Assembly (NCBI GenBank): GCA_902591695.1
Contig: CACJBQ010000002.1
Location: forward strand, 1 to 64,000
DNA from: an uncultured Pelagibacteraceae bacterium
Lineage (GTDB): Bacteria > Pseudomonadota > Alphaproteobacteria > Pelagibacterales > Pelagibacteraceae
Length of the DNA stretch: 64,000 nucleotides
Direction of reading: 5' to 3'
The notes under the pieces were generated by a model that was not told the origin of the DNA, did no database searches, and saw nothing but the letters and a program-made list of their open reading frames with translations. The position numbers were made by a program, and so were the translations under genes. Shown in pieces: positions 54,268 to 60,712 of the stretch. Numbering within the stretch: position 1 is the stretch's first letter; each line of letters starts with the position of its first letter.

Positions 54268-54960
54268 CTAATCAAAAAATCTATATTTAAATATACAGTA
54301 TAAAGCTATAAAGGCATCCTTAAGGGTTATTTTTTTTCCATCCTCATACGATCTTCCTCGATAAGAAATTGGTACCTCATAAAATACATATTTTTTTTTT
54401 GCTAATTTAACTGTAATTTCAGGCTCTATACCAAAAGATTTTTCTTTAATATTTATTGATCGAATTACAGACTTTTTAAATAATTTGTATCCAGTTTCCA
54501 TATCGGACATATTTAGATTTGTAACAATATTGGTAAGTAGTGTGAGAAGTTTATTGGCAACAAAATGCCAAAAAAAATGTAATCTCACATAATCACCCCC
54601 CATAAATCTAGATCCATACACCACATCAGCATCAGTGTTTTTAAAAGGTTTAATTAAAGCAGAATAATCTTTAGGGTCATATTCTAAATCAGCATCTTGT
54701 ATTAGAACTATATCACCACTTACTTCCTCAAAGCCTTTTTTTAAAGCTGAACCTTTACCAAAATTTTTTTCAAGAAAGATACCTCTAATTTCAGGGTATA
54801 GATCTGCAAGATCTTTAATTATAAATTTTGAATTGTCTGTAGAACAATCATCTACAATGATAATTTCTTTTTCTAAATCTTTGAATTTTAGAACTCTCTC
54901 AATAATTATTTTTAGAGTTTTTTCTTCGTTATAACATGGTATAATTATAGATAATTTCAT
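54268..54960 (-). CDS. Glycosyltransferase family 2 (DPM1-like)
   Basis: LSIIIPCYNEEKTLKIIIERVL; IIVDDCSTDNSKFII; IQDADLEYDPKDY; DMETGYKLFKKSV. Confidence 0.94.
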   Translation of the reverse strand: MKLSIIIPCYNEEKTLKIIIERVLKFKDLEKEIIIVDDCSTDNSKFIIKDLADLYPEIRGIFLEKNFGKGSALKKGFEEVSGDIVLIQDADLEYDPKDYSALIKPFKNTDADVVYGSRFMGGDYVRLHFFWHFVANKLLTLLTNIVTNLNMSDMETGYKLFKKSVIRSINIKEKSFGIEPEITVKLAKKKYVFYEVPISYRGRSYEDGKKITLKDAFIALYCIFKYRFFD

Positions 54961-56336
54961 GTTTTCTTTTTAATTAATCTTAGGTATGTAAACAACATTA
55001 AAAATACGATCAACGAAAATCCACCATTGAAATAACCCGCTCCTCTCAAACTTTGAGTAATTATGAATGGTATATAAAAAAACTTCAAATCAATAGGAAT
55101 TTGTTTATTAATTAAAAACAAAATAATAAAAAAATAAAATAAAATACTAAAAATTCCAAATTCAACTATAATTTTTACAAAGTTATTAGTTCCATCTTTG
55201 TTATTATAGCTATTCAATTTCTCAATTTTTGATGGGCTCTTTTCGTTAAAATATCGAAAAGCTACATCATATCTATTTACGCCCCAGCCAAAAGGTTTCT
55301 CTATAATTGATTTTTTTGCGATCATGAAAGCATGAAAATGTATTGCGGATGTTATGTTTCCTGCTTTAACTTTCATAAATTGACTAATCCTTAACGCTAA
55401 GTTTTTATTTATCTCTCCAGCAACTTCAAACTCTAAATTATTTGTATCCTTTTTGTCATTATCTACCAAACCATAAGTAGGAACAAATCTATTTCTACAT
55501 TCGTTATCTAAAATTAATATTCCAAAAAACAATACAAAGATTAAAGAAAAGATTTTTAAAGTGTTTACAGGAATTATTTTAAAATTAAAAATAGTAATTA
55601 TTACTAAGCTTAATGCAGTTCCTAACAATAAAGTTGTAGAACTTTTAATTAAACATAAAAATATAAATATAAAAACTATAAATTTACTTAAAAAAGAAGT
55701 TTTTTGCTTTGAATTTACGTATAATAAATAGGTAATAACACCGGGTGCAATCATACCTAGATGTGAATTTTCTTTAAAAATAAATTCATCCAAAGTAAAT
55801 CTAATTTCTTCAATACGCTCCCCGTTTAAATTAAAATTAATAGCAGAATATTTATCTACGAAACTTAAAATTTTAAAAATTTTTATGCCACCGCAAAAAA
55901 GATTTTGACCGGAATCATTATGATGAAAATAACTCATCAAAACTGATAGAAAAAAAATTACCAAAAATAAATTAACTATATTTTTAATATTTTTATTAAA
56001 CTCATCAAAATAATAAAATGAAATTATAAATATTGCTGTTAAAAATACTATGCCATAAAAATTGTAAAGAGTTAACTTAAAATTTTCGAAATAAATATTA
56101 ACTAAAGAATGAAATATTAAAAATAAAAAAAAATACAAAAAAATTTTTATATTTGAAAAATTTTTCTCGTATAGAATTTTTACCAAGCATGGTAAAAGTA
56201 ATATTAATATTAACATTCTTGCTTGAAAATAATCATATTTAATACCTGAGAGAAAAATAAAAGAAACAAAGATAAAATTAAATGCGATCGTTAAAATTAA
56301 ATTTCGATTATTTAATTTTAAGTCTTTATTCAACAT
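54957..56336 (-). CDS. O-antigen polymerase/ligase-like membrane protein
   Basis: Polytopic; large loop; KPFGWGVNRYDVAFRYF and NFVKIIVEFGIFSILFYFFIILF resemble Wzy/WaaL-like proteins. Confidence 0.65.
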   Translation of the reverse strand: MLNKDLKLNNRNLILTIAFNFIFVSFIFLSGIKYDYFQARMLILILLLPCLVKILYEKNFSNIKIFLYFFLFLIFHSLVNIYFENFKLTLYNFYGIVFLTAIFIISFYYFDEFNKNIKNIVNLFLVIFFLSVLMSYFHHNDSGQNLFCGGIKIFKILSFVDKYSAINFNLNGERIEEIRFTLDEFIFKENSHLGMIAPGVITYLLYVNSKQKTSFLSKFIVFIFIFLCLIKSSTTLLLGTALSLVIITIFNFKIIPVNTLKIFSLIFVLFFGILILDNECRNRFVPTYGLVDNDKKDTNNLEFEVAGEINKNLALRISQFMKVKAGNITSAIHFHAFMIAKKSIIEKPFGWGVNRYDVAFRYFNEKSPSKIEKLNSYNNKDGTNNFVKIIVEFGIFSILFYFFIILFLINKQIPIDLKFFYIPFIITQSLRGAGYFNGGFSLIVFLMLFTYLRLIKKKT

Positions 56337-57855
56337 CTTTTCTTCTATTCATGTACAAATAAAAACCTAAAGGATAGAAACTAATCAAGTTAATCCAATT
56401 ATTAAAAAAGTTTCCATTCGTAGTCAATGGCCATATTGATAAAAATAAACCAATAAGTAAAACTAATTCGCTGTCGGACAGTTTTTTTGAATTTTTATTA
56501 ATTAGATAAAGAAAATTTTTAATTATTAAATAAGTTAAAAATATAAATAACGAAAAAATAAATAAAAATCCTATAATTCCTGTTTCAGCTAAAAGTTGTA
56601 TGTAGAAATTATGTGGATGTGTGTTGCATGCATTTCTCTTTAGAAGTTCGTTTGATGGAGAATGTTGAGGATCTAGATGTAAAAAAATGTGATTATGTAT
56701 AATTATTTTTTCTTTAAATATTTTTTTAATAATCCCTTCCCTATTTGAATAATAAATATTTAATTTATCGTCTCCCACATATTTATAAGAAAAAACTTTA
56801 TCTCCTTTTTCGATTATTTGTTCAGTTGAAACAAAGACTTTTTCCAATTCCATGGGTCTTTTTTCTTTCCAAGGAATGTCTATTGTCAATATTGTATTAT
56901 CTACAAATATTTTGTCTGGAAAATAACTTACAAACCTTTTATCATCACAGTGATATCTATAAGTTTTAGGTCCCTTCCCAATTAATTTATTGTCATTAAA
57001 CATTTTTAATGAAGTTTTAAACATGGGTAAATAGTTTTGTAAAAAACCAATATTTTTTTCTGATTTCCCAAATATATGGCTTTTTAATTGATCTACATAT
57101 CTATCAAATACATTTTGATTCATTAGCATTATCAATATTATGCTTACGGAAGAAAAAATTATACTAAATACTTTAATTCTCCATTTAATACCAGTTACAA
57201 AAAAAATTATTATTAATCCAATTAATGTTTTAAAAAAAGCGGCACGTTCTCCAGATAAAAAAATCATCACTAAGCATAATAAAATAGTAAGAACACTAAC
57301 TTTATTTAATTTAGAGTTACTTTTAAAATACAAAGCTAGTCCAATTAATACAAAAAGAATTCTTGATAAGTAACTACCAAGAATTAAATCTTCTTTAAAG
57401 AAACCAGATATTCTATCTTGTCTATATTTTTCAAATCCAAAAATATTTTTTTCAAAGAAAAATTGGATATATCCATCAATAATTACAATTATGACTGTGG
57501 TTAATAAAAAAATATATAATACTTTTAAATTTTCTTTGCTTTTATTAAGTATTTCAAATACCGCAAAAGGAAATAAAAAAAATCTAAAATAAAAAAAAAT
57601 ATTTAGTATTGTTTCTGGTATAAACTCTGAATTTAAAAGACAAAATAATAAAAATATATAAAAAGAAAAAAAAAATATAACTATTTTTTCTTTGAAGAAA
57701 TCAAATTTTTTTTTTTTTAAAAGATCTGATAAAAATAAAATAATTAATATATTAACAATTAATTCTACTATAAATGGGCCAATTACAAACGCACACGGGA
57801 GTAATGATAGAAGTATTAACGAAAAATTTTTTTTTTTTAATATATGAGTAACCAT
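56326..57855 (-). CDS. O-antigen ligase/polymerase family protein with an unusual periplasmic insertion
   Basis: SGERAAFFKTLIGL; GKGPKTYRYHC; NACNTHPHNFYIQLLAETGIIGFLFIFSLF is WaaL/Wzy-like. Confidence 0.85.
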   Translation of the reverse strand: MVTHILKKKNFSLILLSLLPCAFVIGPFIVELIVNILIILFLSDLLKKKKFDFFKEKIVIFFFSFYIFLLFCLLNSEFIPETILNIFFYFRFFLFPFAVFEILNKSKENLKVLYIFLLTTVIIVIIDGYIQFFFEKNIFGFEKYRQDRISGFFKEDLILGSYLSRILFVLIGLALYFKSNSKLNKVSVLTILLCLVMIFLSGERAAFFKTLIGLIIIFFVTGIKWRIKVFSIIFSSVSIILIMLMNQNVFDRYVDQLKSHIFGKSEKNIGFLQNYLPMFKTSLKMFNDNKLIGKGPKTYRYHCDDKRFVSYFPDKIFVDNTILTIDIPWKEKRPMELEKVFVSTEQIIEKGDKVFSYKYVGDDKLNIYYSNREGIIKKIFKEKIIIHNHIFLHLDPQHSPSNELLKRNACNTHPHNFYIQLLAETGIIGFLFIFSLFIFLTYLIIKNFLYLINKNSKKLSDSELVLLIGLFLSIWPLTTNGNFFNNWINLISFYPLGFYLYMNRRKDVE

Positions 57856-57883: not shown

Positions 57884-59533
57884 CTATTTAAGAAAAAAAG
57901 TATACCCGTATTTCTCTATAATTGGATAATCGTCTTTTGGACTATTAATACATATTTTGTTATAGTCAGCACATTGCCATCCATCAGAAATATAAATTTC
58001 GTAACCATTAAAAACACCTAACTTTGAAATATCTGAATAATCAAAATCCTGTTTATAGCTTTTAGTTAAATTATAAAAATTAAGTTTATTAAAATTCTTT
58101 CCAACTGAAAAAACTATTAAAATTGATAAAAAAAATAATGAAATATTTCTGGTTAGAAAAACTTTTAAAAATTTTAAGTTGATCAAAACATACCCTAAAA
58201 TTAAGCATGGGAAAAATAAAATATGACCCCAACCAAATCTGACCTCTGGTGCTTGCATCCAAAAATAATTATTTAAAAAAAATGATATTACAATTATTGC
58301 TAGTATATCTTTTTTTAAAATATAATTTTTTAAATAACCGAATAAGTAAAGAAATGACAAAACTAAGGTTGAAATTAAAAGCATTGAATAACTAATCTTA
58401 AGTAAAGAGGTATTTAAAAAATAATCATAAAACCAAGGCACAAACCAATCAAAACTGTAAATAGTATGATCAAAATCTAAATATCTCTCTCTTAATCTGG
58501 TGTCTCTTGAAAAACCTTTGGTGGCATTAACTAACAAATCGATTTTATCGTTACCAAAAAACCAGTTAGTATTTAAACAACTAATTTTTACAGGATAAAT
58601 AAAACAAGAAGTTAAAATAAAATTTCTCAGCATCCACAAAGCCAGAAAAAGAGTAGAAAAAAATACTGGAATAAGTGACTTTTTTAATAAATTAATTTTT
58701 TTTATTAATGCATATAATGCAAAGATGGATACCCCGATATAAGTAATTTTAGTTACAACACATAATACAGATGAAATTAGTAATAAGTCAAAATAGTGGG
58801 TTTCTTCAGTTTCATTAAACTTTAAAAAAAAATAAAAAGATGAGATAAATAATATCATAGCTATAGTATCTACTTCAGGATTGCCTAAATGATTGAAAAT
58901 GATGCCATTTTGAAATGGATGAATTATTGAGAAAAATATTAGATATACTCCTACTAAGAATAAACAAATTTCACTTAATAAATAATTTTTACTTGCACTT
59001 AAGTAAACTTGATAAAACAAAACTGTTAAAGGTAAAAAGTTTAAAAGGTATATTGTATCAAAACCTTTTATTTTAAATTTTAACAAAGATAACAATATGT
59101 GCCAGCCAGAATTAAGGCTATATAACCAATCTAAATTTGAAAGACCAAAAACAATTTTTTTATCATAAGCCCATCTAATTGTTTGAGTATGATAAACAGG
59201 TGAATCAATATTGTGACCATTTTCATAATTAATAAATATTAAAAAAAATAAAATTATAGAAAAAATGAAAATATTTATGTTTAATTTTTTTTTAAATACT
59301 AAATATAAAAAAAATACTAATCCAATTAAAATTATATAAATAAAAAATATTTTTAATGGAAAAAAAAAATTTAGTAAAATTGAAGTAAGTATTAAAAAAA
59401 ATATTCCATATAAAAAATCAAAATTATTTATCTGAATAAATGTATTTTCTTTTTCAAAAATTTTTTTTAACAAAAAAGAATATCCAAGTATTGAAAAATA
59501 TATGATCAAATTTAATGTAAAAGATATAATCAT
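57884..59533 (-). CDS. Polytopic membrane protein of unknown function (paralog B)
   Basis: Many TM segments; NIDSPVYHTQTIRWAYDKKIVFGLSNLDWLYSLNSGWH; LTSCFIYPVKISC. Matches 52573..54264 by eye. Confidence 0.75.
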   Translation of the reverse strand: MIISFTLNLIIYFSILGYSFLLKKIFEKENTFIQINNFDFLYGIFFLILTSILLNFFFPLKIFFIYIILIGLVFFLYLVFKKKLNINIFIFSIILFFLIFINYENGHNIDSPVYHTQTIRWAYDKKIVFGLSNLDWLYSLNSGWHILLSLLKFKIKGFDTIYLLNFLPLTVLFYQVYLSASKNYLLSEICLFLVGVYLIFFSIIHPFQNGIIFNHLGNPEVDTIAMILFISSFYFFLKFNETEETHYFDLLLISSVLCVVTKITYIGVSIFALYALIKKINLLKKSLIPVFFSTLFLALWMLRNFILTSCFIYPVKISCLNTNWFFGNDKIDLLVNATKGFSRDTRLRERYLDFDHTIYSFDWFVPWFYDYFLNTSLLKISYSMLLISTLVLSFLYLFGYLKNYILKKDILAIIVISFFLNNYFWMQAPEVRFGWGHILFFPCLILGYVLINLKFLKVFLTRNISLFFLSILIVFSVGKNFNKLNFYNLTKSYKQDFDYSDISKLGVFNGYEIYISDGWQCADYNKICINSPKDDYPIIEKYGYTFFLK

Positions 59534-59542
59534 AATATTTCT

Positions 59543-60712
59543 TTACTTTAATGCTTTGCCTTGAATAATTTTGTCTGATCTTTCCTTATGTGTGTCATAA
59601 GCCCAACATTTAATCATTTCCCTAGAATTAAGATATTTTTGAATTCCGCCTGGTTCTAAACTAAATTTTATTTTAGCACTTACCGCTTCTTTTGGGGCAC
59701 AAATATTGTTATTTTTATATTCAATTTGAAGAAAATTGTAATTAGTTATCCATGAAAAAAAATTAAAAAATATTATTAAAAATAAAATTTTTTTATTAAA
59801 AAATTTTGTAATAAAAAAATATAAAAATATTATACCTGGTTGCAAATATGATAGCTCAGCTGGTATATATAAAAAAAGTAAAAAATTAAGTAAAATAATA
59901 AAAAAAATAACTCTGTATTTATATAAATTAATAATTAGTGTTTTAGATCTCAGAAATGTAAAAAGAATTAATATTATTTGAATTAAACCTAAAGCTAATA
60001 TTGTTTTGTAAGCAAATCTTGCTAAAATTCCAAAAAAACCTTGGTCTGTTGGTCTTGCTGCTGTTAACCACTCTAGGGAAAATGAATAATCATACCATAT
60101 TGGAACATAAAAAAGTCCACTAACAAAAAATATTGAGAGAAAAATTATAATTTTTCTATTTAATGAAATTTTGTAATCATAATTATACAAAAATATTATG
60201 GGAATTATAAAAATTAAAAAATTGATTCTCGCGCCAATAGAAATCGATAAAAGTAAGATTGCTAATTCTATCTTTTTTTTTGATAATAAATAAAAACCTA
60301 GTCCAAAAGGGAATAGCGCCCAAGAGTAATCTATTGGTTCTAAATTATCAAAGTAAAGTACTTGACTAGATAAGCAAAGTAATAAATAGGGATATAAGTC
60401 TAAATCATTTTTTTTTGATAGTGCAAGAAAAATAAAAAATATTCCAAATAAAAATAATAAAAACGTTATCAAATTTGTAACAAAACTACCAAAAAAATAA
60501 GATAAGAAACCTATGCCCATTTCAGCAACTGGATTGCCTGTAAATCTTGAGGTTACAAAAGTTCCATCTATTAATCTTCTTTCAAAAACATATATCATTG
60601 GAAGTGTATCTTCATCTGACCCATAACCTCCAATGAAAGATAAATAAATTGCAAAGATCAGTAATATTGAAATAAGAAATATTATAAAAACGTTAGGCTT
60701 TATTTTAGCCAT
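59543..60712 (-). CDS. Polytopic membrane protein, possible GT-C-like enzyme
   Basis: ~10 TM segments; YGSDEDTLPMIYVFERRLIDGTFVTSRFTGNPVAEMG first periplasmic loop. Confidence 0.55.
   Translation of the reverse strand: MAKIKPNVFIIFLISILLIFAIYLSFIGGYGSDEDTLPMIYVFERRLIDGTFVTSRFTGNPVAEMGIGFLSYFFGSFVTNLITFLLFLFGIFFIFLALSKKNDLDLYPYLLLCLSSQVLYFDNLEPIDYSWALFPFGLGFYLLSKKKIELAILLLSISIGARINFLIFIIPIIFLYNYDYKISLNRKIIIFLSIFFVSGLFYVPIWYDYSFSLEWLTAARPTDQGFFGILARFAYKTILALGLIQIILILFTFLRSKTLIINLYKYRVIFFIILLNFLLFLYIPAELSYLQPGIIFLYFFITKFFNKKILFLIIFFNFFSWITNYNFLQIEYKNNNICAPKEAVSAKIKFSLEPGGIQKYLNSREMIKCWAYDTHKERSDKIIQGKALK

What the first reader, a model, noticed from the sequence alone, without database searches (positions are those of the whole stretch)
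56640..56930. Lipoyl/biotinyl-like insertion in the periplasmic loop of an O-antigen ligase-family protein
Between GKGPKTYRYHCDDKRF and NACNTHPHNFYIQLLAETG, where related proteins as I know them run almost directly into the HPHN block, there are ~90 extra residues: ...MELEKVFVSTEQIIEKGDKVFSYKYVGDDKLNIYYSNREGIIKKIFKEKIIIHNHIFLHLDPQ.... The pattern 'V...I.KGD.VF.Y........I.S.REGIIKKI......I....FL.LD' resembles a barrel-sandwich hybrid (biotinyl/lipoyl-like) fold. An inserted hybrid-motif domain in a WaaL/Wzy-like enzyme would be unusual; it may bind glycan or act as a docking module. It lacks an obvious modified-Lys MKM/DKA motif.
Basis: inference. Interest (0 to 1): 0.6.

Follow-up and report, generated by a model that had tools for sequence, protein, structure and literature searches.

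The report
Lipoyl-fold domain inside O-antigen ligase-like enzyme
A sugar-chain ligase-type membrane enzyme of an ocean SAR11 bacterium carries, next to its catalytic histidines, an extra folded domain of the kind that normally holds lipoic acid or biotin, but without the attachment lysine, so it was probably reused as a docking or recognition module.

Summary
The 509-aa Wzy_C/O-antigen-ligase protein (window 56326-57855, minus strand, SAR11) has 106 residues between two conserved, predicted periplasmic cysteines (C303, C410) just before the catalytic-type THPHN motif; most relatives have about 20-35. A profile of seven such inserts finds lipoyl and biotinyl domains at the top of the PDB (E 1e-8), and in two tested genomes matches nothing but insert carriers and Biotin_lipoyl proteins. 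A reversed profile finds none. AlphaFold2 gives a confident beta domain (pLDDT 88-96 over its core), and Foldseek returns WaaL first and then biotinyl/lipoyl domains. Eight distinct carriers form one clade (support 77) within one Pelagibacteraceae genus, about 1% of sampled genomes, with a shared gene set. The insert evolves under purifying selection (dN/dS 0.25). No lysine is conserved at the canonical modified position, and the loop is predicted periplasmic, so cofactor attachment is unlikely. Best explanation: an unmodified hybrid domain captured once, working as a docking or substrate-recognition module at the acceptor side of the active site. Fold and position are well supported; function is inferred. 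Class: new variant of a known kind.

The parts
56326..57855 (-). O-antigen ligase/polymerase-family (Wzy_C) integral membrane protein, 509 aa, 12 predicted TM helices
   Evidence: Pfam PF04932 55.3 bits versus cut-off 31.7; Foldseek top hit WaaL 7tpg, prob 1.00
56629..56946 (-). inserted segment, residues 304-409, between C303 and C410, in the TM9-TM10 (predicted periplasmic) loop
   Evidence: absent from most homologues
56668..56856 (-). barrel-sandwich (biotinyl/lipoyl-like) core, residues about 334-396
   Evidence: profile match to lipoyl/biotinyl domains over profile positions 29-97; AF2 strands 335-340, 353-359, 366-369, 374-379, 390-395
56947..56949 (-). C303, first conserved loop cysteine (possible disulphide partner)
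   Evidence: at least 90% conserved in 70 homologues; only C303 and C410 lie outside TM helices
56626..56628 (-). C410, second conserved loop cysteine
   Evidence: at least 90% conserved in 70 homologues
56608..56619 (-). HPHN motif, residues 413-416, catalytic-type histidines
   Evidence: H413 and H415 invariant in 70 homologues; aligned with HAHN of WaaL 7tpg
54957..56336 (-). second, insert-free Wzy_C-like protein (459 aa), next gene downstream; present in several carrier loci
   Evidence: PF04932 26.8 bits, below cut-off
54268..54960 (-). family 2 glycosyltransferase resembling polyprenyl-phosphate sugar synthases, 64-68% identical in most carrier loci
   Evidence: PF00535 1.1e-39
57884..59533 (-). 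549-aa polytopic membrane protein, GT-C-like by appearance; good matches only in carrier loci
   Evidence: no Pfam or PDB match
59543..60712 (-). 389-aa polytopic membrane protein found only in carrier loci of this set
   Evidence: no Pfam or PDB match

Best explanation
The segment is a folded barrel-sandwich hybrid domain of the biotinyl/lipoyl superfamily, inserted once in an ancestor of this clade into the periplasmic loop of a WaaL/Wzy-type glycosyltransferase, between two conserved cysteines and directly before the catalytic-type HPHN motif. It carries no cofactor. It most likely works as a docking and positioning module at the acceptor side of the active site, binding a partner protein or another copy of itself, much as the unmodified lipoyl domains of periplasmic adaptor proteins stabilise assemblies. 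Shown by computation: position, fold, homology, rarity, one clade, purifying selection, lack of the canonical lysine. Inferred: periplasmic side (from homology to WaaL), the disulphide, and the docking role.
For: Profile of 7 inserts against the PDB: 7b9k PDH E2 1.2e-8, 2ejm biotinyl domain 5.3e-5, 1iyu 4.2e-4, 1z6h 7.7e-4; reversed profile finds no lipoyl domain. In G012 and G086 every match up to E 10 is either the insert itself or a PF00364 protein of that genome. Across 347 order genomes, the strongest matches after the 5 carriers fall in about 1,020-1,031-aa and 415-435-aa frames; the examples inspected are PDH E1 and E2. Pfam Biotin_lipoyl or Biotin_lipoyl_2 in 4 of 7 inserts, best 7e-4. 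AF2 mean pLDDT 89.7, residues 331-380 at 88-96. Foldseek rank 1 WaaL, then BCCPs with TM 0.74-0.79 by target length; the different insert of L096 gave no such hits. Carriers are one clade, support 77; dN/dS 0.25 in the insert versus 0.10 elsewhere for one pair. No conserved Lys at the canonical hairpin position. Lipoyl domains of periplasmic adaptors also lack the lysine and are thought to stabilise assembly (PMC4446572).
Against: Nothing here tests function. The window insert alone scores no Pfam family; only the group profile is significant. Foldseek E-values for the domain are modest (0.02 and up), the query being the full 509 residues. The insert evolves faster than the rest and its conserved residues look mainly structural, so no binding surface can be pointed to. 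The shared gene set could be simple co-inheritance of a cluster. Clade support is only 77.
Confidence: 0.58

Rival explanations
1. The domain is a glycan- or acceptor-binding module: it holds the acceptor (lipid A-core or growing chain) over the HPHN catalytic site and sets specificity for the glycan of this cluster, with no protein partner.
For: Its position is directly before the HPHN motif; in WaaL the long periplasmic loop carries two Arg that bind Und-PP phosphates and a His proposed to activate the acceptor (PMC10920833). Basic residues occur in the hairpin region of most members. It is tied to one gene cluster type.
Against: I know of no standard carbohydrate-binding role for biotinyl/lipoyl hybrid domains (own knowledge); no conserved aromatic or polar patch was identified beyond residues that look structural.
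Confidence: 0.25
2. The insert is a passive stabilising or spacer domain: a folded lid that tolerates drift and contributes only to loop stability.
For: Faster evolution than the rest of the protein; loop length varies in other SAR11 relatives (L072, L079, L096) and many relatives do without it.
Against: Fold motifs retained while insert sequences diverged to 16-39% identity and purifying selection dN/dS 0.25, in a lineage known for small genomes.
Confidence: 0.13
3. A true cofactor-carrying (lipoylated or biotinylated) domain acting as a redox or carrier arm in the periplasm.
For: Fold and sequence homology to PDH lipoyl domains; the window has DDK near the hairpin tip.
Against: The Lys is not at the canonical spacing to the following Ser (S-6 rather than S-7 in the window) and is Arg or shifted in other members; hairpin length varies. 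The predicted periplasmic location puts it out of reach of the cytoplasmic ligases.
Confidence: 0.02
4. The resemblance is chance: a beta-rich loop that merely looks like a hybrid motif.
For: Single sequences score weakly; the window insert alone hits no Pfam family.
Against: and the negative controls 83 and 89.
Confidence: 0.02

Closest known systems
WaaL O-antigen ligase (7tpg; PF04932 family)
   Same: Multi-TM fold (Foldseek prob 1.00, TM 0.64 by target length), periplasmic loop with HxHN histidines
   Different: 7tpg (403 residues modelled) is about 100 residues shorter than the window protein, consistent with lacking the hybrid domain; about 11% identity
Lipoyl domains of pyruvate dehydrogenase E1/E2 (SAR11 relatives and 7b9k)
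   Same: Closest by sequence profile; same two-half GD..V..GD / S..eGki..i pattern
   Different: No canonical DKA lysine, predicted periplasmic, inserted in a membrane enzyme
Biotin carboxyl carrier domains (5gu8, 2ejm, 1z6h)
   Same: Best Foldseek matches for the insert, TM 0.58-0.79 by target length
   Different: No MKM motif
Lipoyl domain of periplasmic adaptor (membrane fusion) proteins such as AcrA, MacA, EmrA
   Same: Unmodified, extracytoplasmic, hairpin loop altered instead of carrying the lysine; thought to stabilise assemblies (PMC4446572)
   Different: No alpha-hairpin, no beta-barrel domain; host protein is a glycosyltransferase

Membership tests
O-antigen ligase / Wzy_C (PF04932) | Pfam score over gathering cut-off | tested here: met
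   55.3 bits versus 31.7
O-antigen ligase / Wzy_C (PF04932) | WaaL-type multi-TM fold | tested here: met
   AF2 helices; 7tpg rank 1, prob 1.00
O-antigen ligase / Wzy_C (PF04932) | Conserved catalytic-type His and Arg residues | tested here: met
   R91, R204, H413, H415 invariant in 70 homologues
O-antigen ligase / Wzy_C (PF04932) | Ligase activity (rather than polymerase or protein O-glycosylation) | not testable with these tools
   Sequence does not separate them; weak, below-cut-off NCBIfam matches to several types
Biotinyl/lipoyl hybrid-motif superfamily (fold) | Barrel-sandwich fold of two interlocking four-stranded halves | tested here: met
   AF2 strands and Foldseek
Biotinyl/lipoyl hybrid-motif superfamily (fold) | Sequence homology by profile | tested here: met
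   E 1.2e-8 to PDH E2; reversed control negative
Biotin_lipoyl (PF00364) as cofactor-carrying domain | Modified Lys in DKA or MKM hairpin | tested here: not met
   Position not conserved, hairpin length varies
Biotin_lipoyl (PF00364) as cofactor-carrying domain | Window insert scores in the Pfam family on its own | tested here: not met
   0 families for the window insert; 4 of 7 inserts match, best 7e-4
Periplasmic adaptor / membrane fusion protein | Lipoyl domain split by alpha-helical hairpin, plus beta-barrel domain | tested here: not met
   No helix between the strands of the insert in the model

The most novel reading that the evidence does not exclude
A housekeeping-type lipoyl domain was captured into the active-site loop of a periplasmic glycan ligase/polymerase, lost its cofactor site and became a dedicated assembly module that couples the enzyme to cluster-specific partners (second Wzy_C protein, GT-C-like membrane proteins), setting which glycan is transferred.
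Probability: 0.2. Interest if true: 0.65.

Novelty: new variant of a known kind. Interest (0 to 1): 0.5.

Why it matters
O-antigen ligases and polymerases are usually described as a conserved membrane core with variable loops. A folded domain placed directly before the catalytic histidines gives a testable handle on how these enzymes choose or position substrate and partners. It also shows a lipoyl-fold domain reused without its cofactor in the envelope of one of the ocean's most abundant bacterial groups, whose O-chain clusters are highly diverse (PMC11898729). I found no description of such an insertion in the papers held; subscription journals are mostly not covered.

Tried and rejected
Cofactor-bearing domain: rejected on the missing canonical lysine and the predicted location. 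Universal family segment: rejected. Disordered loop: rejected. Chance resemblance: rejected with a reversed-profile control and a structural control, the different long insert of L096, which AF2 did not fold with confidence (pLDDT about 39-65 over much of it) and which gave no lipoyl hits. Idea that the long loops of L072/L079/L096 are the same domain: not supported; they sit elsewhere in the tree, and the fold of L096's insert is undetermined. Idea that 450-533-aa lipoyl hits in other SAR11 genera are further carriers: rejected, the four inspected are E2 proteins. Apparent 3,108-aa ligase fusion in G155: artefact of masked N runs. Phage origin: no protein match in phages; the viral fold library gave ordinary lipoyl domains and one phage membrane protein at the top. 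The GT-C-like neighbours found no Pfam or PDB family. In the tree script the loop trimming misplaced the cut in two short rows (L089, L105), not in the carriers.

Full report
WHAT WAS CLAIMED.

OBSERVATION. The gene is at 56326-57855 on the minus strand and encodes 509 aa. It scores 55.3 bits to Pfam Wzy_C against a cut-off of 31.7, in two stretches either side of the insert. Contigs of the nearest relatives are labelled Pelagibacteraceae, so the window is SAR11. The segment lies between C303 and C410 (residues 304-409, window 56629-56946). The GxGP-to-HxHN interval is 22-51 residues in short-loop relatives and 109-162 in long-loop proteins.

DISTRIBUTION. In 200 relatives, 119 genomes have a homologue but, besides the window, only G066 and G086 align through the loop in one piece. 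Insert-only searches find 4 carriers among 399 genomes of the genus (G000, G066, G086, G421) and 5 among 347 of the order (G000, G086, G619, G622, G654); the two samples overlap and many genomes are incomplete. The genome-contig scan adds L066 and recovers the same proteins as L067-L071. Eight distinct carrier proteins were found. In 289 genomes of the class no carrier was seen outside the window's own genome; hits elsewhere break at the loop.

FOLD BY SEQUENCE. A profile of 7 inserts (A5) searched against the PDB gives lipoyl/biotinyl domains at the top: 7b9k 1.2e-8 (summed over three repeated domains), 2ejm 5.3e-5, 1iyu 4.2e-4, 1z6h 7.7e-4. The reversed profile finds none. In G012 (one contig, listed as 100% complete) all three matches up to E 10 coincide with PF00364 proteins; in G086 the four matches are the insert itself and three PF00364 proteins. 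In the order sample the strongest background hits lie in about 1,020-1,031-aa and 415-435-aa frames, and those inspected are PDH E1 and E2. Four of seven inserts hit Biotin_lipoyl or Biotin_lipoyl_2 in Pfam on their own, best 7e-4; the window insert does not.

FOLD BY STRUCTURE. AF2 with 70 homologues gives mean pLDDT 89.7, pTM 0.86. The insert has strands at 311-318, 322-324, 335-340, 353-359, 366-369, 374-379, 390-395 and 403-408, with block means of 88-96 for residues 331-380 and 71-86 at the edges. Foldseek of the whole model against the PDB gives WaaL 7tpg first (E 1.2e-4, prob 1.00, TM 0.64 by target length); ranks 2-50 are largely biotin carboxyl carrier and lipoyl domains, with smaller groups such as EutE/DoeB and CphZ (best 5gu8, TM 0.79 by target length, E 0.02). 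As a control, the long but different insert of L096 was not confidently folded (blocks mostly 39-70) and its model returned WaaL but no lipoyl domains of note.

ANATOMY. H413 and H415 are invariant in 70 homologues, as are R91 and R204; C303 and C410 are at least 90% conserved and are the only cysteines outside TM helices. By homology to WaaL, whose long periplasmic loop holds the phosphate-binding Arg residues and the proposed catalytic His (PMC10920833), the insert is periplasmic and next to the active site; a disulphide closing it is an inference. The hairpin where cofactor domains carry Lys has variable length; the window has Lys at S-6 instead of S-7, L071 has Arg, others are shifted. This is not a conserved modification site.

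EVOLUTION. A tree built without the loop puts all 8 carriers on one side of one branch (support 77), while other long-loop proteins (L072, L079/L096) fall elsewhere. Insert identity among carriers is 16-39% (78% for the close pair L068/L070), lower than in the rest of the protein. For L068/L070 dN/dS is 0.25 in the insert and 0.10 elsewhere, so the insert is under purifying selection, although more weakly. The closest sequences are PDH lipoyl domains; capture from such a gene is compatible but not shown.

CONTEXT. Carrier loci share a set of neighbours: a 389-393-aa membrane protein found in no other locus of this set, a 549-554-aa membrane protein with only weak (25-27%) matches elsewhere, a 230-aa family 2 glycosyltransferase at 64-68% in most carriers, an inverted 550-560-aa membrane protein, often gmd/fcl, and in several a second Wzy_C-like gene (families). 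Flanks are unequal and clusters travel together, so this supports a specific glycan type but not a physical interaction.

HOW IT PROBABLY WORKS. Lipoyl domains of periplasmic adaptor proteins also lack the lysine, have an altered hairpin, and are thought to stabilise assembly through the transporter or self-association (PMC4446572). By analogy the insert most likely serves as a docking and positioning module at the acceptor side of the active site. Complexes of a polymerase of this general kind with a partner protein are known (WzyE/WzzE, PMC10030265). My weights for the role: protein docking or self-association about 0.58, glycan or acceptor binding 0.25, passive 0.13, cofactor arm about 0.02, chance resemblance 0.02. 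The fold itself I hold at above 0.95.

NOVELTY. The enzyme core and the domain fold are each known; the combination, in this loop, was not found in the searched literature. I class it as a new variant of a known kind, seen only in a small SAR11 clade.

Noticed in passing
L079:5953-7437, L096:5986-7488, L072:5965-7596, L165: Other SAR11 ligase-family proteins carry different long insertions (about 95-148 aa) in the same inter-cysteine loop, with motifs such as VYAPYDGVAKI or KSPIDGFFY; the L096 insert was not confidently folded by AF2. The loop may be a recurrent insertion site.
   Followed up: partly
54957-56336 (-): A second, insert-free Wzy_C-like protein lies directly downstream, overlapping the first gene by 11 bases; tandem ligase/polymerase pairs recur in several carrier loci.
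   Followed up: partly
57884-59533 (-) and 59543-60712 (-): Two multi-TM proteins with no Pfam or PDB match, conserved at about 45-53% among carriers; possible uncharacterised GT-C glycosyltransferases.
   Followed up: partly
L195 (G155:C2): A 3,108-aa frame containing a ligase is an artefact of masked N runs, not a fusion.
   Followed up: yes
L166 (G494:C53:4821-5468): A ligase-family stretch with four in-frame stops in another genus of the family, possibly a pseudogene.
   Followed up: no
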